Below, piece after piece: positions 2,349 through 60,004 of a DNA stretch of 64,000 nt. The position numbers and the translations under genes were made by a program. This DNA is from Xanthostigma xanthostigma (Eukaryota; Arthropoda; Insecta; Raphidioptera; Raphidiidae). The notes under the pieces are model-generated. The model saw only the letters and a program-made list of their open reading frames with translations. It was not told the origin of the DNA and did no database searches. Each line of letters opens with the position of its first letter. Positions within the stretch are counted from its first letter, which is position 1. The stretch is from contig OY754468.1 in the NCBI GenBank assembly GCA_963575645.1, positions 23,584,465 to 23,648,464 of the forward strand, read 5' to 3'.

Positions 2349-2426
<78 letters not shown>
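2349..2426. repeat. (AT)n microsatellite 2
   Basis: A near-perfect AT dinucleotide run abutting the left end of the satellite-bearing block. The minus-strand frame through it is poly Tyr-Ile and not a gene. Confidence 0.97.
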
Positions 2427-2427
<1 letters not shown>

Positions 2428-2710
2428 TATGTTTTCTATACAAGGTGAGATCATTTGGTGATAAATGCTATACAAATGGAGATCCGTTTTGACAAGCCGA
2501 GATCCGAATCGGATCTCATTGTGTTTCTATGTGTATATCAATTTTTTTCGGTTAATATGGGTGTGGGGAATGCGCAGTTAAATTTTAGTCCGGATCTCCA
2601 TTTTCCCATTTTTATCAATTTTTATACACGAGTAGTTCAACCAAACGCACTAGTGAGGTCACTGCTGTGCCAAACTTGTATATAACATTTCGTGCACAAC
2701 CTGAGATCCT
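2428..2710. repeat. Left end with iterated GAGATCC motifs
   Basis: GAGATC-type motifs occur at 2444-2452, 2477-2486, 2498-2506, 2510-2518 (inverted), 2591-2600 (inverted) and 2701-2710. TATACAAATGGAGATCCG at 2469-2486 is matched inverted by CGGATCTCCACTTGTATA at 29943-29960. Clustered motifs in both orientations near an element end look like subterminal transposase or recombinase binding sites, but that function is inferred. Confidence 0.55.
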
Positions 2711-2719
2711 GTATAATCG

Positions 2720-3177
2720 GCAACACTGCGTCGCATATTATTTTCATACACACAGACGCCTTTATTTATTTTATGTTATATCATCTAAGTTTGTTTCGGA
2801 GCTCAAGCCTCAAACCGAGTGAATAAAATTCATAACTTTGGAATTTTGTAACATTGCATTTTATAATGATCATGTTAATGAGTAAAACCGTCGGAATAGG
2901 TAAGCGTAAGATTAAAGGCTAGCGGTTAAATATAATTGATTTATCTACATATTATATGAGTATTTGAAAAAAAAGTTGAGCATGCTATGATATTCAAATT
3001 GAAGTAAAAAAAAATAGATAATCAATATTTCTACAATAATTTCTTTTAGTTGTTCGTTTATTTATAATAAAGGAGTAATGGCTTGAGGCAGGAAGCAAAC
3101 AGTGTAGATATTTCCAGAAAAAAAAAATAAAAAAAATATTATCATAAGTTTTTATTAAACTGAAACTGTACTTATTA
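2720..3177. other. Unassigned AT-rich sequence inside the element
   Basis: No open frame or repeat of note. On the minus strand it lies downstream of the C-terminal exon-like piece and may be 3' non-coding sequence. Confidence 0.4.
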
Positions 3178-3317
3178 CAATAAATAAAATTATCGACCAA
3201 TTTTTCAGACAAATATATTAACAAAAAATAATAATTAATACATTGACGTTTCGGTATTAATTGAAATTTTTTGTTAATATATTTGTCTGAAAAATTAGTC
3301 GATAGTTTTATTTATTG
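3178..3317. repeat. Foldback hairpin, about 52-bp arms
   Basis: 3178-3229 is the near-perfect reverse complement of 3266-3317 (CAATAAATAAAATTAT versus the ATAGTTTTATTTATTG end), with a 36-bp spacer. It is a small foldback or MITE. It lies just beyond the C-terminal exon-like piece on the minus strand. Confidence 0.9.
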
Positions 3318-3385
3318 AAGAATTCTAATCAGACATTAATCAAAGATTTATACTTATTACATATTTTTTAATTTAATACTTTTAT

Positions 3386-3581
3386 TTATACCCAGTTCTT
3401 GTCCTTAAATAAATCTGGATATTTTTCCCGTAATTTTAGACATTCTGCTTTTTTGGGAGAGTTTTTTTTATATGAGTTTTGAAAAATTGTAACATTTTAG
3501 ATTTTTGCTGTTTATTCCATGATCCAAGGCAATTTTTTTTGTCTGTGTTTACTTTACTCTTCTCCTTTTTGCGTGGTGTTT
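3386..3581 (-). pseudogene. C-terminal exon-like piece of the recombinase-like gene
   Basis: On the minus strand a long pyrimidine tract ending TTTTTTACAG (acceptor, 3582-3591) is followed by coding-like sequence. It has a Lys-rich stretch, then a Trp-anchored helical segment (GSWNKQQKSKMLQFFKTHIK), then KYPDLFKDKNWV. I recall this W...FF..HI...P.K.EC...W pattern as the C-terminal domain of a multi-copy invertebrate protein family whose core resembles tyrosine recombinases. Its function is unknown to me. The frame is not continuous across the piece. The exon begins in the phase left by the exon at 3922-4017, which supports the pairing. Confidence 0.55.
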
Positions 3582-3921
3582 CTGTAAAAAATAAGCGTAA
3601 GAAGAATTCGAATTTTCGTATTAATAATACAAAGATTATTAATTTTATTTTAACGTGATTTAAGCTGTTCTGTCAAGTTTGCAAGTCTACAGAAATCGCA
3701 TAACTTCGAGTTCGCGCAATTTGGAGTAGCGTAATTCGGGATATTACAGGGTATATAGATTTTAATGGGATTATCTTCAAAAATAAGTCATGTCTGTGAC
3801 ACTCTGTACCTATATCAGAATAAACTTTATGTACCTGTAAGCAATAATTATTTTTCAAAATTCTAAATTTCAACAGAGATTTATGTGGTTCATGCACTTT
3901 CGGTGATCATTCATACGCAAC

Positions 3922-4017
3922 CTTCCTCTGATTCAGAATTAATATCGTTCTGGGTTTCATACTCGGGGACTACAACAGTATTTGAATCATCTAGTGTACC
4001 TCGTTGACTTGGGGCAT
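3922..4017 (-). pseudogene. Acidic linker exon of the recombinase-like gene
   Basis: 96 nt open throughout on the minus strand, preceded by a pyrimidine-rich acceptor ending TGTCTGTTATCAG. It reads as a polar acidic linker including DDSNTVVVPEYETQNDINSE. It ends GGAAG before a GT donor. It enters with two bases of a codon and leaves one, matching the next piece at 3581. The intron between them would be 340 nt. The satellite boundary is only about 90 bp upstream, so the array occupies the intron before this exon. Translation alone gives no function; the assignment rests on phase, orientation and position. Confidence 0.5.
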
Positions 4018-4107
4018 CTGATAACAGACAGTCAAAAATGAGAAAAAGTGTTACGTATGTGATTTTTAATATTCTAATGTTTGAAAAATAGTTTTAATAA
4101 TAATACG

Positions 4108-7100
4108 TGATCGACCAGAAAATGATCGACCAGAAAAGTGAACGACCAGAAAATGATCGACCAGAAAAGTGAACGACCAGAAAATGATCGACCAGAAAAG
4201 TGAACGACCAGAAAATGTTCGTCCAGAAAAGGGAACGACCAGAAAATGATCGACCAGAAAAGGGAACGACCAGAAAATGATCGACCAGAAAAGGGAACGA
4301 CCAGAAAATGATCGACCAGAAAAGGGAACGACCAGAAAATGATCGACCAGAAAAGGGAACGACCAGAAAATGATCGACCAGAAAAGGGAACGACCAGAAA
4401 ATGATCGACCAGAAAAGGGAACGACCAGAAAATGATCGACCAGAAAAGGGAACGACCAGAAAATGATCGAACAGAAAAGGAAACGACCAGAAAATGATCG
4501 ACCAGAAAAGGGAACGACCAGAAAATGATCGACCAGAATAGGGAACGACCAGAAAAGGGAACGACCAGAAAAAATGATCGACCAGAAAAGGGAACGACCA
4601 GAAAAAATGATCGACCAGAAAAGGGAACGACCAGAAAAAATGATCGACCAGAAAAGGGAACGACCAGAAAATGATCGACCATAAAAGGGAACGACCAGAA
4701 AATGATCGACCAGAAAAGGGAACGACCAGAAAATGATCGACCAGAAAAGGGAACGACCAGAAAATGATCGACCAGAAAATGATCGACCAGAAAAGTGAAC
4801 GACCAGAAAATGATCGACCAGAAAAGTGAACGACCAGAAAATGATCGACCAGAAAAGTGAACGACCAGAAAATGTTCGTCCAGAAAAGGGAACGACCAGA
4901 AAATGATCGACCAGAAAAGGGAACGACCAGAAAATGATCGACCAGAAAAGGGAACGACCAGAAAATGATCGACCAGAAAAGGGAACGACCAGAAAATGAT
5001 CGACCAGAAAAGGGAACGACCGGAAAATGATCGACCAGAAAAGGGAACGACCAGAAAATGATCGACCAGAAAAGGGAACGACCAGAAAATGATCGACCAG
5101 AAAAGGGAACGACCAGAAAATGATCGAACAGAAATGGGAACGACCAGAAAATGATCGACCAGAAAAGGGAACGACCAGAAAATGATCGACCAGAAAAGGG
5201 AACGACCAGAAAATGATCGACCAGAAAAGGGAACGACCAGAAAATGATCGACCAGAAAAGTGAATGACCAGAAAATGATCGACCAGAAAAGTGAACGAAC
5301 AGAAAATGATCGACCAGAAAAGGGAACGACCAGAAAATGATCGACCAGAAAAAGGAACGACCAGAAAATGATCGACCAGAAAAGGGAACGACCAGAAAAT
5401 GATCGACCAGAAAAGGGAACGACCAGAAAATGATCGACCAGAAAAGGGAACGACCAGAAAATGATCGACCAGAAAAAGGAACGACCAGAAAATGATCGAC
5501 CAGAAAAGGGAACGACCAGAAAATGATCGACCAGAAAAGGGAACGACCAGAAAATGATCGACCAGAAAAGGGAACGACCAGAAAATGATCGACCAGAAAA
5601 TGATCGACCAGAAAAGTGAACGACCAGAAAATGTTCGACCAGAAAAGGGAACGACCAGAAAATGTTCGACCAGAAAAGGGAACGACCAGAAAATGATCGA
5701 CCAGAAAAGGGAACGACCAGAAAATGATCGACCAGAAAAGGGACGACCAGAAAATGATCGACCAGAAAAGGGAACGACCAGAAAATGATCGACCAGAAAA
5801 GGGAACGACCAGAAAATGATCGACCAGAAAAGGGAACGACCAGAAAATGATCGACCAGAAAATGATCGACCAGAAAAGGGAACGACCAGAAAATGATCGA
5901 CCAGAAAAGGGAACGACCAGAAAATGATCACCCAGAAAAGGGAACGACCAGAAAATGATCGACCAGAAAAGGGAACGACCAGAAAATGATCGACCAGAAA
6001 AGGGAACGACCAGAAAATGATCGACCAGAAAATGATCGACCAGAAAAGTGAACGACCAGAAAATGATCGACCAGAAAAGGGAACGACCAGAAAATGATCG
6101 ACCAGAAAAGGGAACGACCAGAAAATGATCGACCAGAAAAGGGAACGACCAGAAAATGATCGACCAGAAAAGGGAACGACCAGAAAATGATCGACCAGAA
6201 AAGGGAACGACCAGAAAATGATCGACCAGAAAAGGGAACGACCAGAAAATGATCGACCAGAAAAGGGAACGACCAGAAAATGATCGACCAGAAAAGGGAA
6301 CGACCAGAAAATGATCGACCAGAAAAGTGAACGACCAGAAAATGATTGACCAGAAAAGTGAACGACCAGAAAATGATCGACCAGAAAAGTGAACGACCAG
6401 AAAATGTTCGTCCAGAAAAGGGAACGACCAGAAAATGATCGACCAGAAAAGGGAACGACCAGAAAATGATCGACCAGAAAAGGGAACGACCAGAAAATGA
6501 TCGACCAGAAAAGGGAACGACCAGAAAATGATCGACCAGAAAAGGGAACGACCAGAAAATGATCGACCAGAAAAGGGAACGACCAGAAAATGATCGACCA
6601 GACAAGTGAACGACCAGAAAATGGTCGACCAGAAAAGGGAACGACCAGAAAATGATCGACCAGAAAAGGGAACGACCAGAAAATGATCGACCAGAAAAGG
6701 GAACGACCAGAAAATGATCGACCAGATGATCGAAGGGAACGACCAGAAAATGATCGACCAGAAAATGATCGACCAGAAAAGGGAACGACCAGAAAATGAT
6801 CGACCAGAAAAGGGAACGACCAGAAAATGATCGACCAGAAAAGGGAACGACCAGAAAATGATCGACCAGAAAAGGGAACGACCAGAAAATGATCGACCAG
6901 AAAAGTGAACGACCAGAAAATGATCGACCAGAAAAGTGAACGACCAGAAAATGATCGACCAGAAAAGGGAACGACCAGAAAATGATCGACCAGAAAAGGG
7001 AACGACCAGAAAATGATCGACCAGAAAAGGGAACGACCAGAAAATGATCGACCAGAAAAGGGAACGACCAGAAAATGATCGACCAGAAAAGGGAACGACC

Positions 7101-10100
7101 AGAAAATGATCGACCAGAAAAGGGAACGACCAGGAAATGATCGACCAGAAAAGTAAACGACCAGAAAATGATCAACCAGAAAAGTGAACGACCAGAAAAT
7201 GTTCGACCAGAAAAGGGAACGACCAGAAAATGATCGACCAGAAAAGGGAACGACCAGAAAATGATCGACCAGAAAAGGGAACGACCAGAAAATGATCGAC
7301 CAGAAAAGGGAACGACCAGAAAATGATCGACCAGAAAAGGGAACGACCAGAAAATGATCGACCAGAAAAGAAAACGACCAGAAAATGATCGACCAGAAAA
7401 GGGAACGACCAGAAAATGATCGACCAGAAAAGGGAACGACCAGAAAATGATCGACCAGAAAAGGGAACGACCAGAAAATGATCGACCAGAAAAGGGAACG
7501 ACCAGAAAATGATCGACCAGAAAATGATCGACCAGAAAATGATCGACCAGAAAATGATCGACCAGAAAAGTGAACGACCAGAAAATGATCGACCAGAAAA
7601 GTGAACGACCAGAAAATGATCGACCAGAAAAGTGAACGACCAGAAAATGTTTGTCCAGAAAAGGGAACGACCAGAAAATGATCGACCAGAAAAGGGAACG
7701 ACCAGAAAATGATCGACCAGAAAAGGGAACGACCAGAAAATGATCGACCAGAAAAGGGAACGACCAGAAAATGATCGACCAGAAAAGGGAACGACCAGAA
7801 AATGATCGACCAGAAAAGGGAACGACCAGAAAATGATCGACCAGAAAAGGGAACGACCAGAAAATGATCGACCAGAAAAGGGAACGACCAGAAAATGATC
7901 GAACAGAAAAGGGAACGACCAGAAAATGATCGACCAGAAAAGGGAAGAAAAGGGAACGACCAGAAAATGATCGACCAGAATAGGGAACGACCAGAAAAGG
8001 AAACGACCAGAAAAAATGATCGACCAGAAAAGGGAACGACCAGAAAAAATGATCGACCAAAAAAGGGAACGACTAGAAAAAATGATCGACCAGAAAAGGG
8101 AACGACCAGAAAATGATCGACCAGAAAAGGGAACGACCAGAAAATGATCGACCAGAAAAGGGAACGACCAGAAAATGATCGACCAGAAAAGGGAACGACC
8201 AGAAAATGATCGACCAGAAAATGATCGACCAGAAAAGTGAACGACCAGAAAATGATCGACCAGAAAAGTGAACGACCAGAAAATGATCGACCAGAAAAGT
8301 GAACGACCAGAAAATGTTCGTCCAGAAAAGGGAACGACCAGAAAATGATCGACCAGACAAGGGAACGACCAGAAAATGATCGACCAGAAAAGGGAACGAC
8401 CAGAAAATGATCGACCAGAAAAGGGAACGACCAGAAAATGATCGACCAGAAAAGGGAACGACCGGAAAATGATCGACCAGAAAAGGGAACGACCAGAAAA
8501 TGATCGACCAGAAAAGGGAACGACCAGAAAATGATCGACCAGAAAAGGGAACGACCAGAAAATGATCGAACAGAAAAGGGAACGACCAGAAAATGATCGA
8601 CCAGAAAAGGGAACGACCAGAAAATGATCGACCAGAAAAGGGAACGATCAGAAAATGATCGACCAGAAAAGGGAACGACCAGAAAATGATCGACCAGAAA
8701 AGTGAACGACCAGAAAATGATCGACCAGAAAAGTGAACGACCAGAAAATGATCGACCAGAAAAGGGAACGACCAGAAAATGATCGACCAGAAAAAGGAAC
8801 GACCAGAAAATGATCGACCAGAAAAGGGAACGACCAGAAAATGATCGACCAGAAAAGGGAACGACCAGAAAATGATCGACCAGAAAAGGGAACGACCAGA
8901 AAATGATCGGCCAAAAAAGGGAACGACCAGAAAATGATCGAACAGTAAAGGGAACGACCAGAAAATGATCGACCAGAAAAGGGAACGACCAGAAAATGAT
9001 CGACCAGAAAATGATCGACCAGAAAAGGGAACGACCAGAAAATGATCGACCAGAAAAGGGAACGACCAGAAAATGATCGACCAGAAAAGGAAACGACCAG
9101 AAAATGATCGACCAGAAAAGGGAACGACCAGAAAAGGGAACGACTAGAAAATGATCGACCAGAAAAGGGAACGACCAGAAAATGATCGACTAGAAAAGGG
9201 AACGACCAGAAAATGATCGACCAGAAAAGGGAACGACCAGAAAATGATCGACCAGAAAATGATCGACCAGAAAATGATTGACCAGAAAAGGGAACGACCA
9301 GAAAATGATCGACCAGAAAAGGGAACGACCAGAAAATGATCACCCAGAAAAGGGAACGACCAGAAAATGATCGACCAGAAAAAGGAACGACCAGAAAATG
9401 ATCGACCAGAAAAGGGAACGACCAGAAAATGATCGACCAGAAAAGGGAACGACCAGAAAATGATCGACCAGAAAAGGGAACGACCAGAAAATGATCGACC
9501 AGAAAAGGGAACGACCAGAAAATGATCGACCAGAAAATGATCGACCAGAAAAGGGAACGACCAGAAAATGATCGACCAGAAAAAGGAACGACCAGAAAAT
9601 GATCGACCAGAAAAGGGAACGACCAGAAAATGATCGACCAGAAAAGGGAACGACCAGAAAATGATCGACCAGAAAAGGGAACGACCAGAAAATGATCGAC
9701 CAGAAAAGGGAACGACCAGAAAATGATCGAACAGAAAAGGGAACGACCAGAAAATGATCGACCAGAAAAGGGAACGACCAGAAAATGATCGACCAGAATA
9801 GGGAACGACCAGAAAAGGGAACGACCAGAAAAAATGATCGACCAGAAAAGGGAACGACTAGAAAATGATCGACCAGAAAAGGGAACGACCAGAAAATGAT
9901 CGACCAGAAAAGGGAACGACCAGAAAATGATCGACCAGAAAAGGGAACGACCAGAAAATGATCGACCAGAAAAGGGAACGACCAGAAAATGATCGACCAG
10001 AAAAGTGAACGACCAGAAAATGATCGACCAGAAAAGTGAACGACCAGAAAATGATCGACCAGAAAAGGGAACGACCAGAAAATGATCGACCAGAAAAGGG

Positions 10101-13100
10101 AACGACCAGAAAATGATCGACCAGAAAAGGAAACGACCAGAAAATGATCGACCAGAAAAGGGAACGACCAGAAAATGATCGACCAGAAAAGGGAACGACC
10201 AGAAAATGATCGACCAGAAAAGGGAACGACCAGAAAATGATCGACCAGAAAAGGGAACGACCAGAAAATGATCGACCAGAAAAGGGAACGACCAGAAAAT
10301 GATCGACCAGAAAATGATCGACCAGAAAAGTGAACGACCAGAAAATGATCGACCAGAAAAGGGAACGACCAGAAAATGATCGACCAGAAAAGGGAACGAC
10401 CAGAAAATGATCGACCAGAAAATAATCGACCAGAAAAGGGAACGACCAGAAAATGATCGACCAGAAAAGGGAACGACCAGAAAAGGGAACGACCAGAAAA
10501 TGATCGACCAGAAAAGGAAACGACCAGAAAATGATCGACCAGAAAAGGGAACGACCAGAAAAGGGAACGACCAGAAAAGGGAACGACCAGAAAATGATCG
10601 ACCAGAAAAGGGAACGACCAGAAAATGATCGACCAGAAAAGGGAACGACCAGAAAATGATCGACCAGAAAAGGGAACGACCAGAAAATGATCGACCAGAA
10701 AAGGGAACGACCAGAAAATGATCGACCAGAAAAGGGAACGACCAGAAAATGATCGACCAGAAAAGGGAACGACCAGAAAATGATCGACCAGAAAAGGGAA
10801 CGACCAGAAAAGGGAACGACCAGAAAATGATCGACCAGAAAAGGGAACGACCAGAAAATGATCGAACAGAAAAGGGAACGACCAGAAAATGATCGACCAG
10901 AAAAGGGAACGACCAGAAAATGATCGACCAGAATAGGGAACGACCAGAAAAGGAAACGACCAGAAAAAATGATCGACCAGAAAAGGGAACGACCAGAAAA
11001 AATGATCGACCAAAAAAGGGAACGACTAGAAAAAATGATCGACCAGAAAAGGGAACGACCAGAAAATGATCGACCAGAAAAGGGAACGACCAGAAAATGA
11101 TCGACCAGAAAAGGGAACGACCAGAAAATGATCGACCAGAAAAGGGAACGACCAGAAAATGATCGACCAGAAAATGATCGACCAGAAAAGTGAACGACCA
11201 GAAAATGATCGACCAGAAAAGTGAACGACCAGAAAATGATCGACCAGAAAAGTGAACGACCAGAAAATGTTCGTCCAGAAAAGGGAACGACCAGAAAATG
11301 ATCGACCAGAAAAGGGAACGACCAGAAAATGATCGACCAGAAAAGGGAACGACCAGAAAATGATCGACCAGAAAAGGGAACGACCAGAAAATGATCGACC
11401 AGAAAAGGGAACGACCGGAAAATGATCGACCAGAAAAGGGAACGACCAGAAAATGATCGACCAGAAAAGGGAACGACCAGAAAATGATCGACCAGAAAAG
11501 GGAACGACCAGAAAATGATCGAACAGAAAAGGGAACGACCAGAAAATGATCGACCAGAAAAGGGAACGACCAGAAAATGATCGACCAGAAAAGGGAACGA
11601 CCAGAAAATGATCGACCAGAAAAGGGAACGACCAGAAAATGATCGACCAGAAAAGTGAACGACCAGAAAATGATCGACCAGAAAAGTGAACGACCAGAAA
11701 ATGATCGACCAGAAAAGGGAACGACCAGAAAATGATCGACCAGAAAAAGGAACGACCAGAAAATGATCGAACAGAAAAGGGAACGACCAGAAAATGATCG
11801 ACCAGAAAAGGGAACGACCAGAAAATGATCGACCAGAAAAGGGAACGACCAGAAAATGATCGGCCAAAAAAGGGAACGACCAGAAAATGATCGACCAGTA
11901 AAGGGAACGACCAGAAAATGATCGACCAGAAAAGGGAACGACCAGAAAATGATCGACCAGAAAATGATCGACCAGAAAAGGGAACGACCAGAAAATGATC
12001 GACCAAAAAAGGAACGACCAGAAAATGATCGACCAGAAAAGGAAACGACCAGAAAATGATCGACCAGAAAAGGGAACGACCAGAAAAGGGAACGACCAGA
12101 AAATGATCGACCAGAAAAGGGAACGACCAGAAAATGATCGACTAGAAAAGGGAACGACCAGAAAATGATCGACCAGAAAAGGGAACGACCAGAAAATGAT
12201 CGACCAGAAAATGATCGACCAGAAAAGGGAACGACCAGAAAATGATCGACCAGAAAAGGGAACGACCAGAAAATGATCACCCAGAAAAGGGAACGACCAG
12301 AAAATGATCGACCAGAAAAAGGAACGACCAGAAAATGATCGACCAGAAAAGAGAACGACCAGAAAATGATCGACCAGAAAAGGGAACGACCAGAAAATGA
12401 TCGACCAGAAAAGGGAACGACCAGAAAATGATCGACCAGAAAAGGGAACGACCAGAAAATGATCGACCAGAAAAGGGAACGACCAGAAAATGATCGACCA
12501 GAAAAAGGAACGACCAGAAAATGATCGACCAGAAAAGGGAACGACCAGAAAATGATCGACCAGAAAAGGGAACGACCAGAAAATGATCGACCAGAAAAGG
12601 GAACGACCAGAAAATGATCGACCAGAAAAGGGAACGACCAGAAAATGATCGACCAAAAAAGGGAACGACCAGAAAATGATCGACCAGAAAAGGGAACGAC
12701 CAGAAAATGATCGACCAGAAAAGGGAACGACCAGAAAATGATCGAACAGAAAAGGGAACGACCAGAAAATGATCGACCAGAAAAGGGAACGACCAGAAAA
12801 TGATCGACCAGAATAGGGAACGACCAGAAAAGGGAACGACCAGAAAAAATGATCGACCAGAAAAGGGAACGACCAGAAAATGATCGACCAGAAAAGGGAA
12901 CGACCAGAAAATGATCGACCAGAAAAGGGAACGACCAGAAAATGATCGACCAGAAAAGGGAACGACCAGAAAATGATCGACCAGAAAAGGGAACGACCAG
13001 AAAATGATCGACCAGAAAAGTGAACGACCAGAAAATGATCGACCAGAAAAGTGAACGACCAGAAAATGATCGACCAGAAAAGGGAACGACCAGAAAATGA

Positions 13101-16100
13101 TCGACCAGAAAAGGGAACGACTAGAAAATGATCGACCAGAAAAGGGAACGACCAGAAAATGATCGACCAGAAAAGGGAACGACCAGAAAATGATCGACCA
13201 GAAAAGGGAACGACCAGAAAATGATCGACCAGAAAAGGGAACGACCAGAAAATGATCGACCAGAAAAGGGAACGACCAGAAAATGATCGACCAGAAAAGG
13301 GAACGACCAGAAAATGATCGACCAGAAAATGATCGACCAGAAAAGTGAACGACCAGAAAATGATCGACCAGAAAAGGGAACGACCAGAAAATGATCGACC
13401 AGAAAAGGGAACGACCAGAAAATGATCGACCAGAAAATAATCGACCAGAAAAGGGAACGACCAGAAAATGATCGACCAGAAAAGGGAACGACCAGAAAAG
13501 GGAACGACCAGAAAATGATCGACCAGAAAAGGAAACGACCAGAAAATGATCGACCAGAAAAGGGAACGACCAGAAAAGGGAACGACCAGAAAATGATCGA
13601 CCAGAAAAGGGAACGACCAGAAAATGATCGACCAGAAAAGGGAACGACCAGAAAATGATCGACCAGAAAAGGGAACGACCAGAAAATGATCGACCAGAAA
13701 ATGATCGACCAGAAAAGTGAACGACCAGAAAATGTTCGACCAGAAAAGGGAACGACCAGAAAATGTTCGACCAGAAAAGGGAACGACCAGAAAATGATCG
13801 ACCAGAAAAGGGAACGACCAGAAAATGATCGACCAGAAAAGGGAACGACCAGAAAATGATCGACCAGAAAAGGGAACGACCAGAAAATGATCGACCAGAA
13901 AAGGGAACGACCAGAAAATTATCGAACATAAAAGGGAACGACCAGAAAATGATCGACCAGAAAAGGGAACGACCAGAAAATGATCGACCAGAAAAGGGAA
14001 CGACCAGAAAATGATCGACCAGAAAAGGGAACGACCAGAAAATGATCGACCAGAAAAGGGAACGACCAGAAAATGATCGACCAGAAAAGGGAACGACCAG
14101 AAAATGATCGACCAGAAAAGGGAACGACCAGAAAATGATCGACCAGAAAAGAGAACGACCAGAAAATGATCGACCAGAAAAGGGAACGACCAGAAAATGA
14201 TCGACCAGAAAATGATCGACCAGAAAAGTGAACGACCAGAAAATGATTGACCAGAAAAGTGAACGACCAGAAAATGATCGACCAGAAAAGTGAACGACCA
14301 GAAAATGTTCGTCCAGAAAAGGGAACGACCAGAAAATGATCGACCAGAAAAGGGAACGACCAGAAAATGATCGACCAGAAAAGGGAACGACCAGAAAATG
14401 ATCGACCAGAAAAGGGAACGACCAGAAAATGATCGACCAGAAAAGTGAACGACCAGAAAATGATCGACCAGAAAAGGGAACGACCAGAAAATGATCGACC
14501 AGAAAAGGGAACGACCAGAAAATGATCGACCAGAAAAGGGAACGACCAGAAAATGATCGACCAGAAAAGGGAACGACCAGAAAATGATCGACCAGAAAAG
14601 GGAACGACCAGAAAATGATCGACCAGAAAAGGGAACGACCAGAAAATGATCGACCAGAAAAGGGAACGACCAGAAAATGATCGACCAGAAAAGTGAACGA
14701 CCAGAAAATGATCGACCAGAAAAGTGAACGACCAGAAAATGATCGACCAGAAAAGGGAACGACCAGAAAATGATCGACCAGAAAAGGGAACGACCAGAAA
14801 ATGATCGACCAGAAAAGGGAACGACCAGAAAATGATCGACCAGAAAAGGGAACGACCAGAAAATGATCGACCAGAAAAGGGAACGACCAGAAAATGATCG
14901 ACCAGAAAAGGGAACGACCAGAAAATGATCAACCAGAAAAGTGAACGACCAGAAAATGATCGACCAGAAAAGTGAACGACCAGAAAATGTTCGACCAGAA
15001 AAGGGAACGACCAGAAAATGATCGACCAGAAAAGGGAACGACCAGAAAATGATCGACCAGAAAAGGGAACGACCAGAAAATGATCGACCAGAAAAGGGAA
15101 CGACCAGAAAATGATCGACCAGAAAAGGGAACGACCAGAAAATGATCGACCAGAAAAGGGAACGACCAGAAAATGATCGACCAGAAAAGCGTACGACCAG
15201 AAAATGATCGACCAGAAAAGGGAACGACCAGAAAATGATCGACCAGAAAAGGGAACGGCCAGAAAATGATCGACCAGAAAAGGGAACGACCAGAAAATGA
15301 TCGACCAGAAAAGGGAACGACCAGAAAATGATCGACCAGAAAAGGGAACGACCAGAAAATGATCGACCAGAAAATGATCGACCAGAAAATGATCGACCAG
15401 AAAAGTGAACGACCAGAAAATGATCGACCAGAAAAGTGAACGACCAGAAAATGATCGACAAGAAAAGTGAACGACCAGAAAATGTTCGTCCAGAAAAGGG
15501 AACGACCAGAAAATGATCGACCAGAAAAGGGAACGACCAGGAAATGATCGACCAGAAAAGGGAACGACCAGAAAATGATCGACCAGAAAATGATCGACCA
15601 GAAAAGGGAACGACCAGAAAATGATCGACCAGAAAAGGGAACGACCAGAAAATGATCGACCAGAAAAGGGAACGACCAGAAAATGATCGACCAGAAAAGG
15701 GAACGACCAGAAAATGATCGACCAGAAAAGGGAACGGCCAGAAAATGATCGAACAGAAAAGGGAACGACCAGAAAATGATCGACCAGAAAAGGGAACGAC
15801 CAGAAAATGATCGACCAGAATAGGGAACGACCAGAAAAGGGAACGACCAGAAAAAATGATCGACCAGAAAAGGGAACGACCAGAAAAAATGATCGACCAA
15901 AAAAGGGAACGACCAGAAAAAATGATCGACCAGAAAAGGGAACGACCAGAAAATGATCGACCAGAAAAGGGAACGACCAGAAAATGATCGACCAGAAAAG
16001 GGAACGACCAGAAAATGATCGACCAGAAAAGGGAACGACCAGAAAATGATCGACCAGAAAATGATCGACCAGAAAAGTGAACGACCAGAAAATGATCGAC

Positions 16101-19100: not shown

Positions 19101-22100
19101 CCAGAAAATGATCGACCAGAAAATGATCGACCAGAAAAGTGAACGACCAGAAAATGATCGACCAGAAAAGTGAACGACCAGAAAAGGGAACGACCAGAAA
19201 ATGATCGACCAGAAAAGGGAACGACCAGAAAATGATCGACCAGAAAAGGGAACGACCAGAAAATGATCGACCAGAAAAGGGAACGACCAGAAAATGATCG
19301 ACCAGAAAAGGGAACGACCAGAAAATGATCGACCAGAAAAGGGAACGACCAGAAAATGATCGACCAGAAAAGGGAACGACCAGAAAATGATCGACCAGAA
19401 AAGGGAACGACCAGAAAATGATCGACCAGAAAAGGGAACGACCAGAAAATGATCGACCAGAAAATGATCGACCAGAAAAGTGAACGACCAGAAAATGATC
19501 GACCAGAAAAGTGAACGACCAGAAAATGTTCGACCAGAAAAGGGAACGACCAGAAAATGATCGACCAGAAAAGGGAACGACCAGAAAATGATCGACCAGA
19601 AAAGGGAACGACCAGAAAATGATCGACCAGAAAAGGGAACGACCAGAAAATGATCGACCAGAAAAGGGAACGACCAGAAAATGATCGACCAGAAAAGGGA
19701 ACGACCAGAAAATGATCGACCAGAAAAGGGAACGACCAGAAAATGATCGACCAGAAAAGGGAACGACCAGAAAATGATCGACCAGAAAAGTGAACGACCA
19801 GAAAATGTTCGTCCAGAAAAGGGAACGACCAGAAAATGATCGACCAGAAAAGGGAACGACCAGAAAATGATCGACCAGAAAAGGGAACGACCAGAAAATG
19901 ATCGACCAGAAAAGGGAACGACCAGAAAATGATCGACCAGAAAAGGGAACGACCAGAAAATGATCGACCAGAAAAGGGAACGACCAGAAAATGATCGACC
20001 AGAAAAGGGAACGACCAGAAAATGATCGACCAGAAAAGGGAACGACCAGAAAATGATCGAACAGAAAAGGGAACGACCAGAAAATGATCGACCAGAAAAG
20101 GGAACGACCAGAAAATGATCGACCAGAATAGGGAACGACCAGAAAAGGGAACGACCAGAAAAAATGATCGACCAGAAAAGGGAACGACCAGAAAAAATGA
20201 TCGACCAGAAAAGGGAACGACCAGAAAATGATCGACCAGAAAAGGGAACGACCAGAAAATGATCGACCAGAAAAGGGAACGACCAGAAAATGATCGACCA
20301 GAAAATGATCGACCAGAAAAGTGAACGACCAGAAAATGATCGACCAGAAAAGTGAACGACCAGAAAATGTTCGTCCAGAAAAGGGAACGACCAGAAAATG
20401 ATCGACCAGAAAAGGGAACGACCAGAAAATGATCGACCAGAAAAGGGAACGACCAGAAAATGATCGACCAGAAAAGGGAACGACCAGAAAATGATCGACC
20501 AGAAAAGGGAACGACCGGAAAATGATCGACCAGAAAAGGGAACGACCAGAAAATGATCGACCAGAAAAGGGAACGACCAGAAAATGATTGACCAGAAAAG
20601 GGAACGACCAGAAAATGATCGAACAGAAAAGGGAACGACCAGAAAATGATCGACCAGAAAAAGGAACGACCAGAAAATGATCGACCAGAAAAGGGAACGA
20701 CCAGAAAATGATCGACCAGAAAAGGGAACGACCAGAAAATGATCGACCAGAAAAGTGAACGACCAGAAAATGATCGACCAGAAAAGTGAACGACCAGAAA
20801 ATGATCGACCAGAAAAGGGAACGACCAGAAAATGATCGACCAGAAAAAGGAACGACCAGAAAATGATCGACCAGAAAAGGGAACGACCAGAAAATGATCG
20901 ACCAGAAAAGGGAACGACCAGAAAATGATCGACCAAAAAAGGGAACGACCAGAAAATGATCGGCCAGAAAAGGGAACGACCAGAAAATGATCGACCAGTA
21001 AAGGGAACGACCAGAAAATGATCGACCAGAAAAGGGAACGACCAGAAAATGATCGACCAGAAAAGGGAACGACCAGAAAATGATCGACCAGAAAATGATC
21101 GACCAGAAAAGGGAACGACCAGAAAATGATCGACCAGAAAAGGAAACGACCAGAAAATGATCGACCAGAAAAGGGAACGACCAGAAAAGGGAACGACCAG
21201 AAAATGATCGACCAGAAAAGGGAACGACCAGAAAATGATCGACCAGAAAAGGGAACGACCAGAAAATGATCGACCAGAAAAGGGAACGACCAGAAAATGA
21301 TCGACCAGAAATGGGAACGACCAGAAAATGATCGACCAGAAAAGGGAACGACCAGAAAATGATCGACCAGAAAAGGGAACGACCAGAAAATGATCGACCA
21401 GAAAAGGGAACGACCAGAAAATGATCACCCAGAAAAGGGAACGACCAGAAAATAATCGACCAGAAAAAGGAACGACCAGAAAATGATCGACCAGAAAAGG
21501 GAACGACCAGAAAATGATCGACCAGAAAAGGGAACGACCAGAAAATGATCGACCAGAAAAGGGAACGACCAGAAAATGTTCGACAGAAAAGGGAACGACC
21601 AGAAAATGATCGACCAGAAAAGGGAACGACCAGAAAATGATCGACCAGAAAAGGGAACGACCAGAAAATGGTCGACCAGAAAAGGGAACGACCAGAAAAT
21701 GATCGACCAGAAAAGGGAACGACCAGAAAATGATCGACCAAAAAAGGGAACGACCAGAAAATGATCGACCAGAAAAGGGAACGACCAGAAAATGATCGAC
21801 CAGAAAAGGGAACGACCAGAAAATGATCGATCAGAAAAGGGAACGACCAGAAAATGATCGACCAGAAAAGGGAACGACCAGAAAATGATCGAACAGAAAA
21901 GGGAACGACCAGAAAATGATCGACCAGAAAAGGGAACGACCAGAAAATGATCGACCAGAATAGGGAACGACCAGAAAAGGGAACGACCAGAAAAAATGAT
22001 CGACCAGAAAAGGGAACGACCAGAAAAAATGATCGACCAGAAAAGGGAACGACCAGAAAATGATCGACCAGAAAAGGGAACGACCAGAAAATGATCGACC

Positions 22101-25100
22101 AGAAAAGGGAACGACCAGAAAATGATCGACCAGAAAAGGGAACGACCAGAAAAGGATCGACCAGAAAAGGGAACGACCAGAAAATGATCGACCAGAAAAG
22201 GGAACGACCAGAAAATGATCGACCAGAAAAGGGAACGACCAGAAAATGATCGACCAGAAAAGGGAACGACCAGAAAATGATCGACCAGAAAATGATCGAC
22301 CAGAAAAGGGAACGACCAGAAAATGATCGACCAGAAAAGAGAACGACCAGAAAATGATCGACCAGAAAATGATCGACCAGAAACGGGAACGACCAGAAAA
22401 TGATCGACCAGAAAAGGGAACGACCAGAAAATGATCGACCAGAAAAGGGAACGACCAGAAAATGATCGACCAGAAAAGTGAACGACCAGAAAATGATCGA
22501 CCAGAAAAGTGAACGACCAGAAAATGATCGACCAGAAAAGGGAACGACCAGAAAATGATCGACCAGAAAAGGGAACGACCAGAAAATGATCGACCAGAAA
22601 AGGGAACGACCAGAAAATGATCGACCAGAAAAGGGAACGACCAGAAAATGATCGACCAGAAAAGGGAACGACCAGAAAATGATCGACCAGAAAAGAGAAC
22701 GACCAGAAAATGATCGACCAGAAAAGGGAACGACCAGAAAATGATCGACCAGAAAATGATCGACCAGAAAAGTGAACGACCAGAAAATGATCGACCAGAA
22801 AAGTGAACGACCAGAAAATGTTCGACCAGAAAAGGGAACGACCAGAAAATGATCGACCAGAAAAGGGAACGACCAGAAAATGATCGACCAGAAAAGGGAA
22901 CGACCAGAAAATGATCGACCAGAAAAGGGAACGACCAGAAAATGATCGACCAGAAAAGGGAACGACCAGAAAATGATCGACCAGAAAAGGGAACGACCAG
23001 AAAATGATCGACCAGAAAAGGGAACGACCAGAAAATGATCGACCAGAAAAGGGAACGACCAGAAAATGATCGACCAGAAAAGTGAACGACCAGAAAATGT
23101 TCGTCCAGAAAAGGGAACGACCAGAAAATGATCGACCAGAAAAGGGAACGACCAGAAAATGATCGACCAGAAAAGGGAACGACCAGAAAATGATCGACCA
23201 GAAAAGGGAACGACCAGAAAATGATCGAACAGAAAAGGGAACGACCAGAAAATGATCGACCAGAAAAGGGAACGACCAGAAAATGATCGACCAGAATAGG
23301 GAACGACCAGAAAAGGGAACGACCAGAAAAAATGATCGACCAGAAAAGGGAACGACCAGAAAAAATGATCGACCAGAAAAGGGAACGACCAGAAAAAATG
23401 ATCGACCAGAAAAGGGAACGACCAGAAAATGATCGACCAGAAAAGGGAACGACCAGAAAATGATCGACCAGAAAAGGGAACGACCAGAAAATGATCGACC
23501 AGAAAAGGGAACGACCAGAAAATGATCGACCAGAAAATGATCGACCAGAAAAGTGAACGACCAGAAAATGATCGACCAGAAAAGTGAACGACCAGAAAAT
23601 GATCGACCAGAAAATGTTCGTCCAGAAAAGGGAACGACCAGAAAATGATCGACCAGAAAAGGGAACGACCAGAAAATGATCGACCAGAAAAGGGAACGAC
23701 CAGAAAATGATCGACCAGAAAAGGGAACGACCAGAAAATGATCGACCAGAAAAGGGAACGACCGGAAAATGATCGACCAGAAAAGGGAACGACCAGAAAA
23801 TGATCGACCAGAAAAGGGAACGACCAGAAAATGATTGACCAGAAAAGGGAACGACCAGAAAATGATCGAACAGAAAAGGGAACGACCAGAAAATGATCGA
23901 CCAGAAAAGGGAACGACCAGAAAATGATCGACCAGAAAAGGGAACGACCAGAAAATGATCGACCAGAAAAGGGAACGACCAGAAAATGATCGACCAGAAA
24001 AGGGAACGACCAGAAAATGATCGACCAGAAAAGGGAACGACCAGAAAATGATCGACCAGAAAAGGGAACGACCAGAAAATGATCGACCAGAAAAGGGAAC
24101 GACCAGAAAATTATCGACCAGAAAAGGGAACGACCAGAAAATGATCGACCAGAAAATGATCGACCAGAAAAGGGAACGACCAGAAAATGATCGACCAGAA
24201 AAGAGAACGACCAGAAAATGATCGACCAGAAAATGATCGACCAGAAACGGGAACGACCAGAAAATGATCGACCAGAAAAGGGAACGACCAGAAAATGATC
24301 GACCAGAAAAGGGAACGACCAGAAAATGATCGACCAGAAAAGTGAACGACCAGAAAATGATCGACCAGAAAAGTGAACGACCAGAAAATGATCGACCAGA
24401 AAAGGGAACGACCAGAAAATGATCGACCAGAAAAGGGAACGACCAGAAAATGATCGACCAGAAAAGGGAACGACCAGAAAATGATCGACCAGAAAAGGGA
24501 ACGACCAGAAAATGATCGACCAGAAAAGGGAACGACCAGAAAATGATCGACCAGAAAAGAGAACGACCAGAAAATGATCGACCAGAAAAGGGAACGACCA
24601 GAAAATGATCGACCAGAAAATGATCGACCAGAAAAGTGAACGACCAGAAAATGATCCACCAGAAAAGTGAACGACCAGAAAATGTTCGACCAGAAAAGGG
24701 AACGACCAGAAAATGATCGACCAGAAAAGGGAACGACCAGAAAATGATCGAAGAAAAGGGAACGACCAGAAAATGATCGACCAGAAAAGGGAACGACCAG
24801 AAAATGATCGACCAGAAAAGGGAACGACCAGAAAATGATCGACCAGAAAAGGGAACGACCAGAAAATGATCGACCAGAAAAGGGAACGACCAGAAAATGA
24901 TCGACCAGAAAAGGGAACGACCAGAAAATGATCGACCAGAAAAGTGAACGACCAGAAAATGTTCGTCCAGAAAAGGGAACGACCAGAAAATGATCGACCA
25001 GAAAAGGGAACGACCAGAAAATGATCGACCAGAAAAGGGAACGACCAGAAAATGATCGACCAGAAAAGGGAACGACCAGAAAATGATCGACCAGAAAAGG

Positions 25101-28100
25101 GAACGACCAGAAAATGATCGACCAGAAAAGGGAACGACCAGAAAATGATCGACCAGAAAAGGGAACGACCAGAAAATGATCGACCAGAAAAGGGAACGAC
25201 CAGAAAATGATCGAACAGAAAAGGGAACGACCAGAAAATGATCGACCAGAAAAGGGAACGACCAGAAAATGATCGACCAGAATAGGGAACGACCAGAAAA
25301 GGGAACGACCAGAAAAAATGATCGACCAGAAAAGGGAACGACCAGAAAAAATGATCGACCAGAAAAGGGAACGACCAGAAAAAATGATCGACCAGAAAAG
25401 GGAACGACCAGAAAATGATCGACCAGAAAAGGGAACGACCAGAAAATGATCGACCAGAAAAGGGAACGACCAGAAAATGATCGACCAGAAAAGGGAACGA
25501 CCAGAAAATGATCGACCAGAAAATGATCGACCAGAAAAGTGAACGACCAGAAAATGATCGACCAGAAAAGTGAACGACCAGAAAATGATCGACCAGAAAA
25601 GTGAACGACCAGAAAATGTTCGTCCAGAAAAGGGAACGACCAGAAAATGATCGACCAGAAAAGGGAACGACCAGAAAATGATCGACCAGAAAAGGGAACG
25701 ACCAGAAAATGATCGACCAGAAAAGGGAACGACCAGAAAATGATCGACCAGAAAAGGGAACGACCGGAAAATGATCGACCAGAAAAGGGAACGACCAGAA
25801 AATGATCGACCAGAAAAGGGAACGACCAGAAAATGATTGACCAGAAAAGGGAACGACCAGAAAATGATCGAACAGAAAAGGGAACGACCAGAAAATGATC
25901 GACCAGAAAAGGGAACGACCAGAAAATGATCGACCAGAAAAGGGAACGACCAGAAAATGATCGACCAGAAAAGGGAACGACCAGAAAATGATCGACCAGA
26001 AAAGTGAACGACCAGAAAATGATCGACCAGAAAAGTGAACGACCAGAAAATGATCGACCAGAAAAGGGAACGACCAGAAAATGATCGACCAGAAAAAGGA
26101 ACGACCAGAAAATGATCGACCAGAAAAGGGAACGACCAGAAAATGATCGACCAGAAAAGGGAACGACCAGAAAATGATCGACCAAAAAAGGGAACGACCA
26201 GAAAATGATCGGCCAGAAAAGGGAACGACCAGAAAATGATCGACCAGTAAAGGGAACGACCAGAAAATGATCGACCAGAAAAGGGAACGACCAGAAAATG
26301 ATCGACCAGAAAAGGGAACGACCAGAAAATGATCGACCAGAAAATGATCGACCAGAAAAGGGAACGACCAGAAAATGATCGACCAGAAAAGGGAACGACC
26401 AGAAAATGATCGACCAGAAAAGGAAACGACCAGAAAATGATCGACCAGAAAAGGGAACGACCAGAAAAGGGAACGACCAGAAAATGATCGACCAGAAAAG
26501 GGAACGACCAGAAAATGATCGACCAGAAAAGGGAACGACCAGAAAATGATCGACCAGAAAAGGGAACGACCAGAAAATGATCGACCAGAAAAGGGAACGA
26601 CCAGAAAATGATCGACCAGAAAAGGGAACGACCAGAAAATGATCGACCAGAAAAGGGAACGACCAGAAAATGATCACCCAGAAAAGGGAACGACCAGAAA
26701 ATAATCGACCAGAAAAAGGAACGACCAGAAAATGATCGACCAGAAAAGGGAACGACCAGAAAATGATCGACCAGAAAAGGGAACGACCAGAAAATGATCG
26801 ACCAGAAAAGGGAACGACCAGAAAATGATCGACCAGAAAAGGGAACGACCAGAAAATGATGGACCAGAAAATGATCGACCAGAAAAGGGAACGACCAGAA
26901 AATGATCGACCAGAAAAGGGAACGACCAGAAAATGATCGACCAGAAAAGGGAACGACCAGAAAATGATCGACCAGAAAAGGGAACGACCAGAAAATGATC
27001 GACCAGAAAAGGGAACGACCAGAAAATGATCGACCAGAAAAGGGAACGACCAGAAAATGATCGACCAGAAAAGGGAACGACCAGAAAATGATCGATCAGA
27101 AAAGGGAACGACCAGAAAATGATCTACCAGAAAAGGGAACGACCAGAAAATGATCGAACAGAAAAGGGAACGACCAGAAAATGATCGACCAGAAAAGGGA
27201 ACGACCAGAAAATGATCGACCAGAATAGGGAACGACCAGAAAAGGGAACGACCAGAAAAAATGATCGACCAGAAAAGGGAACGACCAGAAAAAATGATCG
27301 ACCAGAAAAGGGAACGACCAGAAAATGATCGACCAGAAAAGGGAACGACCAGAAAATGATCGACCAGAAAAGGGAACGACCAGAAAATGATCGACCAGAA
27401 AAGGGAACGACCAGAAAATGATCGACCAGAAAAGGGAACGACCAGAAAATGATCGACCAGAAAAGGGAACAACCAGAAAATGATCGACCAGAAAAGGGAA
27501 CGACCAGAAAATGATCGACCAGAAAAGGGAACGACCAGAAAATGATCGACCAGAAAATGATCGACCAGAAAAGGGAACGACCAGAAAATGATCGACCAGA
27601 AAAGAGAACGACCAGAAAATGATCGACCAGAAAATGATCGACCAGAAACGGGAACGACCAGAAAATGATCGACCAGAAAAGGGAACGACCAGAAAATGAT
27701 AGACCAGAAAAGGGAACGACAAGAAAATGATCGACCAGAAAAGGGAACGACCAGAAAATTATCGACCAGAAAAGGGAACGACCAGAAAATGATCGACCAG
27801 AAAAGGGAACGACCAGAAAATGATCGACCAGAAAAGGGAACTACCAGAAAATGATCGACCAGAAAAGGGAACGACCAGAAAATGATCGACCAGAAAAGGG
27901 AACGACCAGAAAATGTTCGACCAGAAAAGGGAACGACCAGAAAATGATCGACCAGAAAAGGGAACGACCAGAAAATGATCGACCAGAAAAGGGAACGACC
28001 AGAAAATGATCGACCAGAAAAGGGAACGACCAGAAAATGATCGACCAGAAAAGGGAACGACCAGAAAAAATGATCGACCAGAAAAGGGAACGACCAGAAA

Positions 28101-28804
28101 AAATGATCGACCAGAAAAGGGAACGACCAGAAAAAATGATCGACCAGAAAAGGGAACGACCAGAAAATGATCGACCAGAAAAGGGAACGACCAGAAAATG
28201 ATCGACCAGAAAAGGGAACGACCAGAAAAGGGAACGACCAGAAAATGATCGACCAGAAAAGGGAGCGACCAGAAAATGATCGACCAGAAAAGGGAACGAC
28301 CAGAAAATGATCGACCAGAAAAGGGAACGACCAGAAAATGATCGACCAGAAAAGGGAACGACCAGAAAATGATCGACCAGAAAAGGGAACGACCAGAAAA
28401 TGATCGACCAGAAAATGATCGACCAGAAAAGGGAACGACCAGAAAAGGGAACGACCAGAAAATGATCGACCAGAAAAGGGAACGACCAGAAAATGATCGA
28501 CCAGAAAAGGGAACGACCAGAAAATGATCGACCAGAAAATGATCGACCAGAAAAGGGAACGACCAGAAAATGATCGACCAGAAAAGGGAACGACCAGAAA
28601 ATGTTCGACCAGAAAAGGGAACGACCAGAAAATGATCGACCAGAAAAGGGAACGACCAGAAAATGATCGACCAGAAAAGGGAACGACCAGAAAATGATCG
28701 ACCAGAAAAGGGAACGACCAGAAAATGATCGACCAGAAAAGGGAACGACCAGAAAATGATCGACCAGAAAAGGGAACGACCAGAAAATGATCGACCAGAA
28801 AAGC
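4108..28804. repeat. 24.7-kb satellite, 31-bp unit (15+16-bp dimer), about 797 units
   Basis: The plus-strand unit is AACGACCAGAAAATG followed by ATCGACCAGAAAAGGG. The halves share CGACCAGAAAA, so the 31-mer is a dimer of an older 15-16-bp repeat. Composition per unit is 15 A, 8 G, 6 C and 2 T, a strong strand skew. Most units are identical or differ by one or two bases. Half-unit gains and losses are frequent. Shared variants define higher-order blocks. The consensus has no CT, TTA, CTA or TCA on the plus strand, so the minus strand has no AG dinucleotide and no stop in any frame. No gene or foreign insertion is visible inside. It is too uniform for CRISPR and is not telomeric. Confidence 0.98.
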
Positions 28805-29320
28805 GTATGGCAATATTGTTATTGTTATTGAGTTTTGGGGGGTGGCTAAATAGGGGTAAATTTAATCGAAATCGGATGGCATTGATACACACTATTATTT
28901 GTACTTAGGACAGTATAAATTTCAAATGCCATCTGATTTGAACAATTTTTAGTGTGTTTTTTTTACTTATTGTTAAAAAAAATCGAAAAAAAGGGTTTTT
29001 CGGCGACATTGAGGGGTTGTTTCTCCGAAACTGCCCATCAGGTTCGGATGGCAATTTTTTCCCAAAGTTTGGTGGTGTCAATAAGTATGCTCACTAATTT
29101 ATAAATAAACCCCCTTTAAAATTGACAGTCAATTACGAAGCAGCCTGTATTGAAAAATAATTTGTTTTAGTTGGTACACATAATAATTAATTATTATTTA
29201 TTACCTATATAAGCTATGTTTAAAAAAAATCCTAAAATATGTATTTAGGTATTATTTAATTATATAAGAAGTTTTTACCCGAAATAAAGCGAAAGAAAAA
29301 TAATTTTCTTCCTACAATTT
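28805..29320. other. Right flank of the satellite
   Basis: The array stops at AAAAGCGTATGGCAATATTG. The flank holds related short blocks ATGGCA(T/A) and TGCCATC near 28876, 28929 and 29048, including two GGATGGCA copies at 28874 and 29046, a pattern I associate with non-coding insect repeats. No splice site or coding frame could be supported here, so how the recombinase-like fragment once joined the left exons is unknown. Confidence 0.5.
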
Positions 29321-29497
29321 TTATAGTTTATTTATAAAATATACATAAGAAGACGCACGAACAGTTTTGTTCGTGCGTCTTTTCGTATGACCCATAAAAG
29401 TAGCCAATTGTTCCATTTCATTATCATTAAGGTTTAAAATTTGTAAAACAGTTGCAATTTGTTTTCTGAGACGGGAAGATGTTAAAGTACCCCGATT
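29321..29497 (-). pseudogene. Tyrosine-recombinase-like C-terminal core fragment
   Basis: A 59-codon open minus-strand frame that includes TSSRLRKQIATVLQILNLND and then NEMEQLATFMGHTK. The arrangement R-x-x-K..AT, an L-rich spacer, then L..FMGH resembles the R...H/K and LGH...Y boxes of tyrosine recombinases. I recall near-identical TSTRLRK..AT...LATFMGHT segments in a multi-copy family of uncharacterised invertebrate proteins. Similarity ends at the GHTK motif, where a perfect 13-bp-arm hairpin (29350-29381) begins, so the catalytic Tyr region is not seen. The upstream zinc-finger-like part that family often has is also not visible. It is a remnant and activity is not expected. Confidence 0.6.
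29350..29381. repeat. Perfect short hairpin at the end of the recombinase similarity
   Basis: AAGACGCACGAAC, a 6-base loop AGTTTT, then GTTCGTGCGTCTT. It sits exactly where protein similarity stops, so it probably marks a rearrangement rather than a functional structure. A terminator role cannot be supported in a eukaryotic context. Confidence 0.85.
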
Positions 29498-29717
29498 TTT
29501 TTCGTTTTAACGAAACAAAAGGCAATTTATGTATTACAATTTTAATTTATCAATGATGAAATATTAAAAATAACAGTTTTATAGTCTTTCAAATTTTATT
29601 ACAAAATGCTTTTAATAACAGCAAAATATTTTGCTGTACTATAAAATGGTTTTTGCATTCACAAAAAAGAGTTTTGCTTGAATGTAGCTTAAAAATTAAA
29701 AAGTTAATTTAACTTAC

Positions 29718-29796
29718 CTTTGTCTTGTATACTAGCAGTTGTCGTGTATTTTTTATTTATAGCCAGATTTACTAACTTTTTCCCACGTGATAACAT
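29718..29796 (-). pseudogene. First coding exon of the recombinase-like gene
   Basis: Minus-strand ATG at 29796-29794 in a CCAAA context opens 26 codons beginning MLSRGKKLVNLAINKK. The exon ends ACAAAG followed by GTAAGTT (29711-29717), a consensus 5' splice site. An N-terminus with RGKKL...LA is what I recall for the family named at 29321-29497, but that match is weak because it is short. No acceptor is evident between here and the recombinase fragment 220 bp away, so the middle of the gene appears lost. The ATG lies about 340 bp inside the right end of the proposed element, a sensible place for a promoter-proximal exon. Confidence 0.5.
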
Positions 29797-29879
29797 TTTG
29801 GAGCAAATTATTTTTCGTCACTATCACAATTTGAACACTTATTAACTACTAAAAGTGCACGCGTACTGCGTAGCAACGT

Positions 29880-30138
29880 CACAAGAATTTGGCAATGCTG
29901 CAGGATCTCATTTTATGCTACATACATCGTGATATACATTTCCGGATCTCCACTTGTATACATTTCAAATTTTGTCACGAAAAATTTAAACGCAGAAATT
30001 GTTTCCCCTCTGCGGGGTTATAGATTAAGGACAATAAAAGGAAGCTTTTTGTGAAAAATATACTCCAGAAAACCTTTTTTTTGTGGTGGACCTCGGGTTG
30101 TCTATAATTTAGTCGGATCTCCACTTGATACAAAAACA
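29880..30138. repeat. Right end with GGATCTCC motifs
   Basis: CGGATCTCCACTTG occurs at 29943-29956 and 30114-30127, and AGGATCTCA at 29902-29910. These are inverted relative to the main motifs of the left end. The segment abuts the (AT)n tract at 30139. Confidence 0.55.
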
Positions 30139-30166
30139 TATATATATATATACATATATATATAAA
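30139..30166. repeat. (AT)n microsatellite 3
   Basis: A short AT run with one CAT interruption between the proposed right element end and dispersed repeat R. Confidence 0.9.
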
Positions 30167-30294
30167 CATTTCCAAAAATGGTGCCAAACTTCTTAAAAAA
30201 TTATGAAACGTCGAGAAATTTTGGTCCGACCCCTAGGTCCCGCCATCCGACCGACGCCAATAGAGTAAGTGCCTTATGGCAAATACACTAATAA
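30151..30294 (+). repeat. Dispersed repeat R, copy 2
   Basis: Matches 339-486 with only a few substitutions in the same orientation, ending at CACTAATAA. Confidence 0.9.
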
Positions 30295-30862: not shown

Positions 30863-31211
30863 CAGGGGTCGGCAACCTGCGGCTCGCGAGCCGCATGCAG
30901 CTCTTTTGATGTAAAGTTGCGGTTCTCCAGTTCCGTACGCAAAAAATAATTATTTTATCATATAAACCCTTAAAAATCGTCCAATCGATCCATGACTGAG
31001 TAGCATGTCTATCTTTCAGTCATTTCCACTCGCGTTTCACCCGCATCGCCCCCGTCGCGACGTGTCGTCCTCGAATATATAATATATTATACCTATATGA
31101 GGAAATACTATAATACTGAAACGAAAATGTTTAGTGGATTTTTAAAAACTGGGAAATTTTGTAAATTGTAACTTTTGGCTCTCTTCCGTCTCAAAAGGTT
31201 GCCGACCCCTG
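30863..31211. mobile_element. hAT MITE 1 with perfect 8-bp target duplication
   Basis: 349 bp. The termini CAGGGGTCGGCAACCT and AGGTTGCCGACCCCTG are perfect 16-bp inverted repeats. CTCTATAC flanks both sides (30855-30862 and 31212-31219), the 8-bp duplication expected of hAT. It has no transposase. An internal palindrome GGCTCGCGAGCC lies near 30881. Confidence 0.97.
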
Positions 31212-31219
31212 CTCTATAC

Positions 31220-31764: not shown

Positions 31765-31792
31765 AAGATCCCAGAGCCGCCAGACACAACCT

Positions 31793-39667: not shown

Positions 39668-39689
39668 AGCGACTGTCTTATCTATATAA

Positions 39690-44334: not shown

Positions 44335-44337
44335 TTA

Positions 44338-60003: not shown

Positions 60004-60004
60004 T

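What the first reader, a model, noticed from the sequence alone, without database searches (positions are those of the whole stretch)
2428..30138. A 25-kb satellite sits inside a decayed recombinase-like mobile element
Pieces of one minus-strand gene lie on both sides of the array in the expected order: first exon and recombinase-like core on the right, linker and C-terminal exons on the left. The whole is bounded by weak inverted ends. Family recognition of the core and C-terminal pieces is from memory. If right, the satellite expanded within an intron or internal region of a transposon, which would let a transposon seed and carry a satellite.
Basis: partly seen in the sequence, partly recalled or inferred. 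Interest (0 to 1): 0.9.

Follow-up and report, generated by a model that had tools for sequence, protein, structure and literature searches.

The report
Dead transposon split by satellite array
What look like the two halves of one dead jumping gene lie on either side of a 25,000-base run of short repeats, but nothing here shows that the jumping gene created or carried the repeats, and satellite arrays inside transposons are already known.

Summary
The anatomy largely holds. A 24.7-kb array of a 31-bp unit (4112-28803) separates two stretches whose outer ends share motifs: 9 of the 11 non-array copies of GAGATC/GATCTC lie in the two end zones; with all 6-mers tried, none of 112 control zone pairs is as enriched (log10 p -14.7, best control -9.0). 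Exon-like minus-strand pieces lie in N-to-C order, with splice sites that can be read in matching phase, though partly chosen by eye. The right junction lies in the (AT)n part of a repeat also present at 321-487. Best reading: one decayed DNA element, split by the array in a former intron. The recombinase-like family name rests on memory; no search confirmed it. That the transposon seeded or carries the satellite is not supported: no unit-like seed in the flanks exceeds controls, and the array abuts a foreign-looking 345-bp stretch (28804-29148). The host genome is not held, so the decisive test, other copies of the element, could not be run. Satellites inside DNA transposons are known (Tetris). 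Interest is moderate to low.

The parts
2353..2430 (.). (AT)n tract bordering the left end
2431..2760 (+). left end zone of the element with six GAGATC/GATCTC motifs
3178..3317 (.). inverted repeat, two 64-nt arms 92% complementary with 12 nt between, downstream of the C-terminal piece
   Evidence: I1
3386..3581 (-). C-terminal exon-like piece, with a frameshift and stops; acceptor TTTTTTACAG by eye
3922..4017 (-). linker exon-like piece; phase 1 in and, with the donor chosen, phase 1 out
4112..28803 (+). 31-bp satellite array = mostly alternating 15-mer CGACCAGAAAATGAT and 16-mer CGACCAGAAAAGGGAA
28804..29148 (.). stretch of different look next to the array; possible fragment of a second element (inference)
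   Evidence: no second copy in the window
29321..29497 (-). fragment of the supposed recombinase-like core (family from memory); a 14-bp inverted repeat lies at 29350-29381
29718..29796 (-). exon 1, MLSRGKKLVNLAINKKYTTTASIQDK, followed by GTAAGT
29870..30137 (-). right end zone with three GATCTC motifs, two of them as CGGATCTCCACTTG
30138..30294 (.). flanking repeat, (AT)n part first; also present at 321-487

Best explanation
A DNA transposon with subterminal inverted motifs and a spliced minus-strand gene inserted in an AT-rich tract and then died. A minisatellite later came to lie in the intron between the core and the linker exon and grew there to 24.7 kb by repeated copying of multi-unit segments (unequal exchange or a similar process). 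The array is a passenger in dead DNA, not a working part of the element. Shown: shared ends on both sides, one array between them, array homogeneous up to both edges. Inferred: that the pieces are one gene, the order of events and the mechanism of growth.
For: Shared end motifs beyond all 112 control zone pairs; exon-like pieces in order with matching phases; the gene is broken; the right junction falls in the (AT)n part of a repeat that has another copy at 321-487. Of 1,587 subunits 209 depart from four canonical forms, with means of 0.07-0.19 mismatches in the 16 bins of 100 subunits and no rise at the edges, apart from the last, incomplete subunit; among exact shared runs of at least 25 subunits, 12 hold at least 5 informative subunits, and these lie 1.2-20.7 kb apart, as segment duplication would leave. 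The nearly stop-free minus strand is explained by the unit: 23 stops seen, 24.0 +/- 3.6 in 200 random placements of the same substitutions, so there is no sign of coding selection, though the 227 substitutions fall in only 96 distinct contexts and are not independent.
Against: No genome to look for other copies, so an array-carrying active copy is not excluded. Abrupt edges with intact units would also fit insertion of a ready-made array. The order (dead first, array later) rests only on decay of the flanks against homogeneity of the array, and homogenisation can hide age. The splice sites were partly chosen for their phase. nhmmer found no likeness between the halves, and so did not recover the end motifs either.
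Confidence: 0.53

Rival explanations
1. A second element, of which 28804-29148 is a fragment, inserted in the intron and brought the array or its seed, for example as its tail.
For: 28804-29148 abuts the array, and the GC of the sequence falls just beyond it, at about 29150. A 10-bp direct repeat TTGAAAAATA flanks array plus this stretch (4081 and 29150), and CGT stands at both array edges (read by eye).
Against: The 10-bp repeat is not beyond chance: 71 of 300 shuffle pairs and 16 of 65 other window stretches reach 10 or more. No second copy of the stretch was found in the window, so that it is a mobile element is inference.
Confidence: 0.22
2. One reading: the transposon itself seeded the satellite from an internal sequence and can carry it.
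For: The array lies between the ends of the element; precedent in Tetris.
Against: The best match of the unit in the left half, the 345-bp stretch and the right half is reached by 6 of 19, 22 of 95 and 10 of 33 control stretches. The only copy in hand is dead. A seed in deleted parts cannot be excluded.
Confidence: 0.13
3. Two separate truncated copies of one family, or an assembly join, flank an unrelated array.
For: Only one locus is available, long arrays are hard to assemble, and the phase match across the array is in part chosen.
Against: The halves are complementary: N-terminal pieces on the right, C-terminal on the left, same strand, outer ends inverted.
Confidence: 0.1

Closest known systems
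Tetris foldback transposon and TIR-220 arrays, Drosophila virilis (PMC4079207; abstract and part 1 of 2 of the Discussion read)
   Same: A DNA element with a long satellite array that grew inside it
   Different: There the repeats are part of the element's own inverted ends, with arrays of up to 66 copies; here the unit has no visible source in what remains of the element, and about 795 copies lie between its gene pieces
miDNA4 MITE of Xenopus (Scalvenzi and Pollet, as described in the review PMC12628747; passages seen)
   Same: Tandem repeats inside a DNA element, proposed there to have been captured from elsewhere
   Different: There a MITE with variable arrays; here one remnant of what looks like a gene-bearing element
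CryptonI and CryptonA of animals (PMC3212892; passages seen)
   Same: Possibly a tyrosine-recombinase-like core (from memory)
   Different: The paper reports no terminal repeats and no C-terminal domain in animal Cryptons; this element has shared end motifs and a further piece after the core

Membership tests
Crypton (animal groups) | Tyrosine recombinase with R-H-R-Y residues | tested here: inconclusive
   Only a fragment of the core remains; no Pfam family and no credible PDB relative (best E 0.47); resemblance is recalled
Crypton (animal groups) | No terminal repeats | tested here: not met
   Shared inverted end motifs; feature from passages of PMC3212892
Crypton (animal groups) | No C-terminal domain | tested here: inconclusive
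   A further exon-like piece follows the core in the gene's order, but its family is recalled only
TE-internal satellite (Tetris kind) | Long tandem array between the ends of one transposon | tested here: met
   one locus only
TE-internal satellite (Tetris kind) | Satellite unit derived from the element's own sequence | tested here: inconclusive
   No seed beyond controls in the remaining halves; parts of the element are missing
TE-internal satellite (Tetris kind) | Array present in several copies of the element | not testable with these tools
   No genome held; no second copy in the window

The most novel reading that the evidence does not exclude
A gene-bearing, recombinase-type transposon tolerates a large satellite in an intron, where splicing removes it from the message, and so could disperse a satellite as intron cargo in many copies.
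Probability: 0.07. Interest if true: 0.75.

Novelty: new member of a known kind. Interest (0 to 1): 0.35.

Why it matters
If other copies carried the array, it would show that a transposon can spread a satellite as intron cargo. As it stands it is a single example of a satellite in dead transposon DNA, useful because both outer ends of the element and both array edges can be read.

Tried and rejected
Looked for the window's own genome: none held. Looked for relatives: the unit as a 26-base form in viral contigs and as a 41-base form in prokaryote genomes, 0 matches each; the core in viral contigs (29 pattern matches, none confirmed); the C-terminal piece in viral contigs (12, none confirmed); a profile of three recalled rows and the window's core in prokaryote genomes (127, none confirmed) and viral contigs (59, none confirmed). 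The C-terminal piece was not searched in prokaryote genomes or the PDB. The one exact match of a 17-base end motif (L001) is a 5,073-base viral contig with a single GAGATC/GATCTC, taken as chance. Array as coding sequence: rejected, since stops are as frequent as random placement of the substitutions predicts. A 10-bp target duplication around array plus 28804-29148: rejected as evidence, since chance gives it often. Seed in the flanks: none beyond controls. Recalled family rows against Pfam: no match reaching a curated cut-off (best HARE-HTH, E 0.0031, 18.3 bits against 25.9). Rfam: no match at the gathering score in the window. Papers: 25 letters of the unit on either strand give 0 papers; two searches with aphid and satellite terms give 0 papers and one gives 15, of which I saw the listing. 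In the pea aphid satellitome paper none of the 43 families of Table 2 is 31 bp long (section read; supplements not read). That the host is an insect, perhaps aphid-like, is a guess.

For that reason the best explanation went from 0.55 to 0.53 and the rival of two copies or an assembly join from 0.08 to 0.10.

Full report
What is there. The window holds one 24.7-kb array of a 31-bp unit at 4112-28803. The unit is two related subunits, a 15-mer and a 16-mer; 709 and 555 of the 1,586 subunits cut between successive starts are exact copies of the two commonest forms, and 67 forms occur in all. Counting the last one, 209 of 1,587 depart from four canonical forms, evenly along the array (means 0.07-0.19 in bins of 100), with no decay at the edges apart from the last, incomplete subunit. 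Of the exact shared runs of at least 25 subunits, 12 hold at least 5 informative subunits; they are 25-50 subunits long and recur 1.2-20.7 kb apart, which fits growth by copying of long segments. A 26-base form of the unit has no match in viral contigs and a 41-base form none in prokaryote genomes.

One element on both sides. The outer zones 2431-2760 and 29870-30137 share short motifs in inverted arrangement. Of 11 copies of GAGATC/GATCTC outside the array, 9 lie there. Since the motif was picked by eye, all 6-mers were tried for 112 control zone pairs (120 drawn, 8 with zones under 600 bases apart dropped): best log10 p -9.0 against -14.7. The zone-pair count is not a real control, since only 2 copies were left to count. 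A longer form, AAGTGGAGATCCG with up to two mismatches, has 6 matches, 5 in the end zones; 0 of 100 shuffles reach 6. Other measures are weaker: 7 shared inverted 9-mers equal the 99th percentile of 950 control pairs; a local alignment of the ends is reached by 2 of 500 shuffles and does not pair the extreme ends; the 55-column match of the extreme ends (E 4.5e-6) includes the AT tract; nhmmer found no likeness between the halves.

The gene. On the minus strand, exon 1 (29796-29718) is followed by GTAAGT and ends in phase 1. The linker piece (4017-3922) is open in one frame of three, the one that continues phase 1, and can leave in phase 1; the C-terminal piece starts at 3581 in phase 1. The sites were assigned by eye: of 6 GT sites in the linker's open stretch only AAG|GTTGCG gives phase 1, so the second join is chosen, and the first match has a chance of about one in three. 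Between exon 1 and the linker lies a 177-bp core fragment (29321-29497) without splice sites that I could assign. The C-terminal piece is frameshifted and stopped. From memory, the core and C-terminal pieces resemble uncharacterised insect and cnidarian proteins with a tyrosine-recombinase-like core; no tool confirmed this: no Pfam or NCBIfam family for either piece, PDB best E 0.47 for the core, no confirmed relative in the scans. Recalled rows of that family gave no Pfam match above a cut-off either.

Where it sits. 321-487 and 30128-30294 match at 95% over 167 columns; the continuous likeness starts at 30138, where the element ends, its first part being AT repeat. The left end also borders an (AT)n tract (2353-2430). 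The simplest reading is insertion into AT-rich repeat DNA, with no target duplication that can be told from the tract. Whether both tracts were once one is not shown.

Did the element make the satellite? No evidence says so. The best match of the unit in the left half, the 345-bp stretch and the right half is no better than in control stretches (6 of 19, 22 of 95 and 10 of 33 as good). The stretch 28804-29148, next to the array, differs in look from the AT-rich sequence beyond it and may be a piece of another element, but it has no second copy in the window. A 10-bp direct repeat around array plus stretch is not beyond chance (71 of 300 shuffle pairs, 16 of 65 window stretches).

What is known. 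Arrays that grow inside DNA transposons are described: Tetris in Drosophila virilis (abstract and part of the Discussion read); a 2025 review describes expansion of tandem repeats within MITEs and arrays in Helitrons (passages seen), as does a 2022 review (passages seen). Animal Cryptons are reported without terminal repeats or C-terminal domain (passages seen), so this element is not filed there.

Verdict. The claim of interest, a transposon that seeds and carries a satellite, needs other copies of the element and is not supported by the one copy at hand.

Noticed in passing
31786-32088, 35177-35947, 46697-47092, 47927-48513, 49923-50185, 51903-52407, 55596-56076, 56448-56599, 56758-57024, 60004-60176: Ten of the self-inverted stretches listed are 150-770 bp long and lie right of the element (foldback-like).
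   Followed up: no
about 30863-31213: Begins CAGGGGTCGGCAACCTGCGGCTCGCGAGCC and ends GGTTGCCGACCCCT (read); recalled as a hAT-like small element.
   Followed up: no
39032-39709 (minus): Open frames that look like the end of a non-LTR retrotransposon reverse transcriptase (from memory); one has a weak Pfam match, DUF6451, below its cut-off.
   Followed up: partly
43756-44869 (plus) and 46451-46723 (minus): Fragments that look like Harbinger-type and mariner-type transposase (from memory); no Pfam match at E 0.1.
   Followed up: partly
4112-28803 (minus): Minus-strand open frames up to 3,856 codons, explained by a unit without stop codons in any frame on that strand.
   Followed up: yes
29350-29381: Perfect 14-bp inverted repeat with 4 bases between, in the core fragment just after the GHT residues, where the reading frame seems to be lost.
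   Followed up: no
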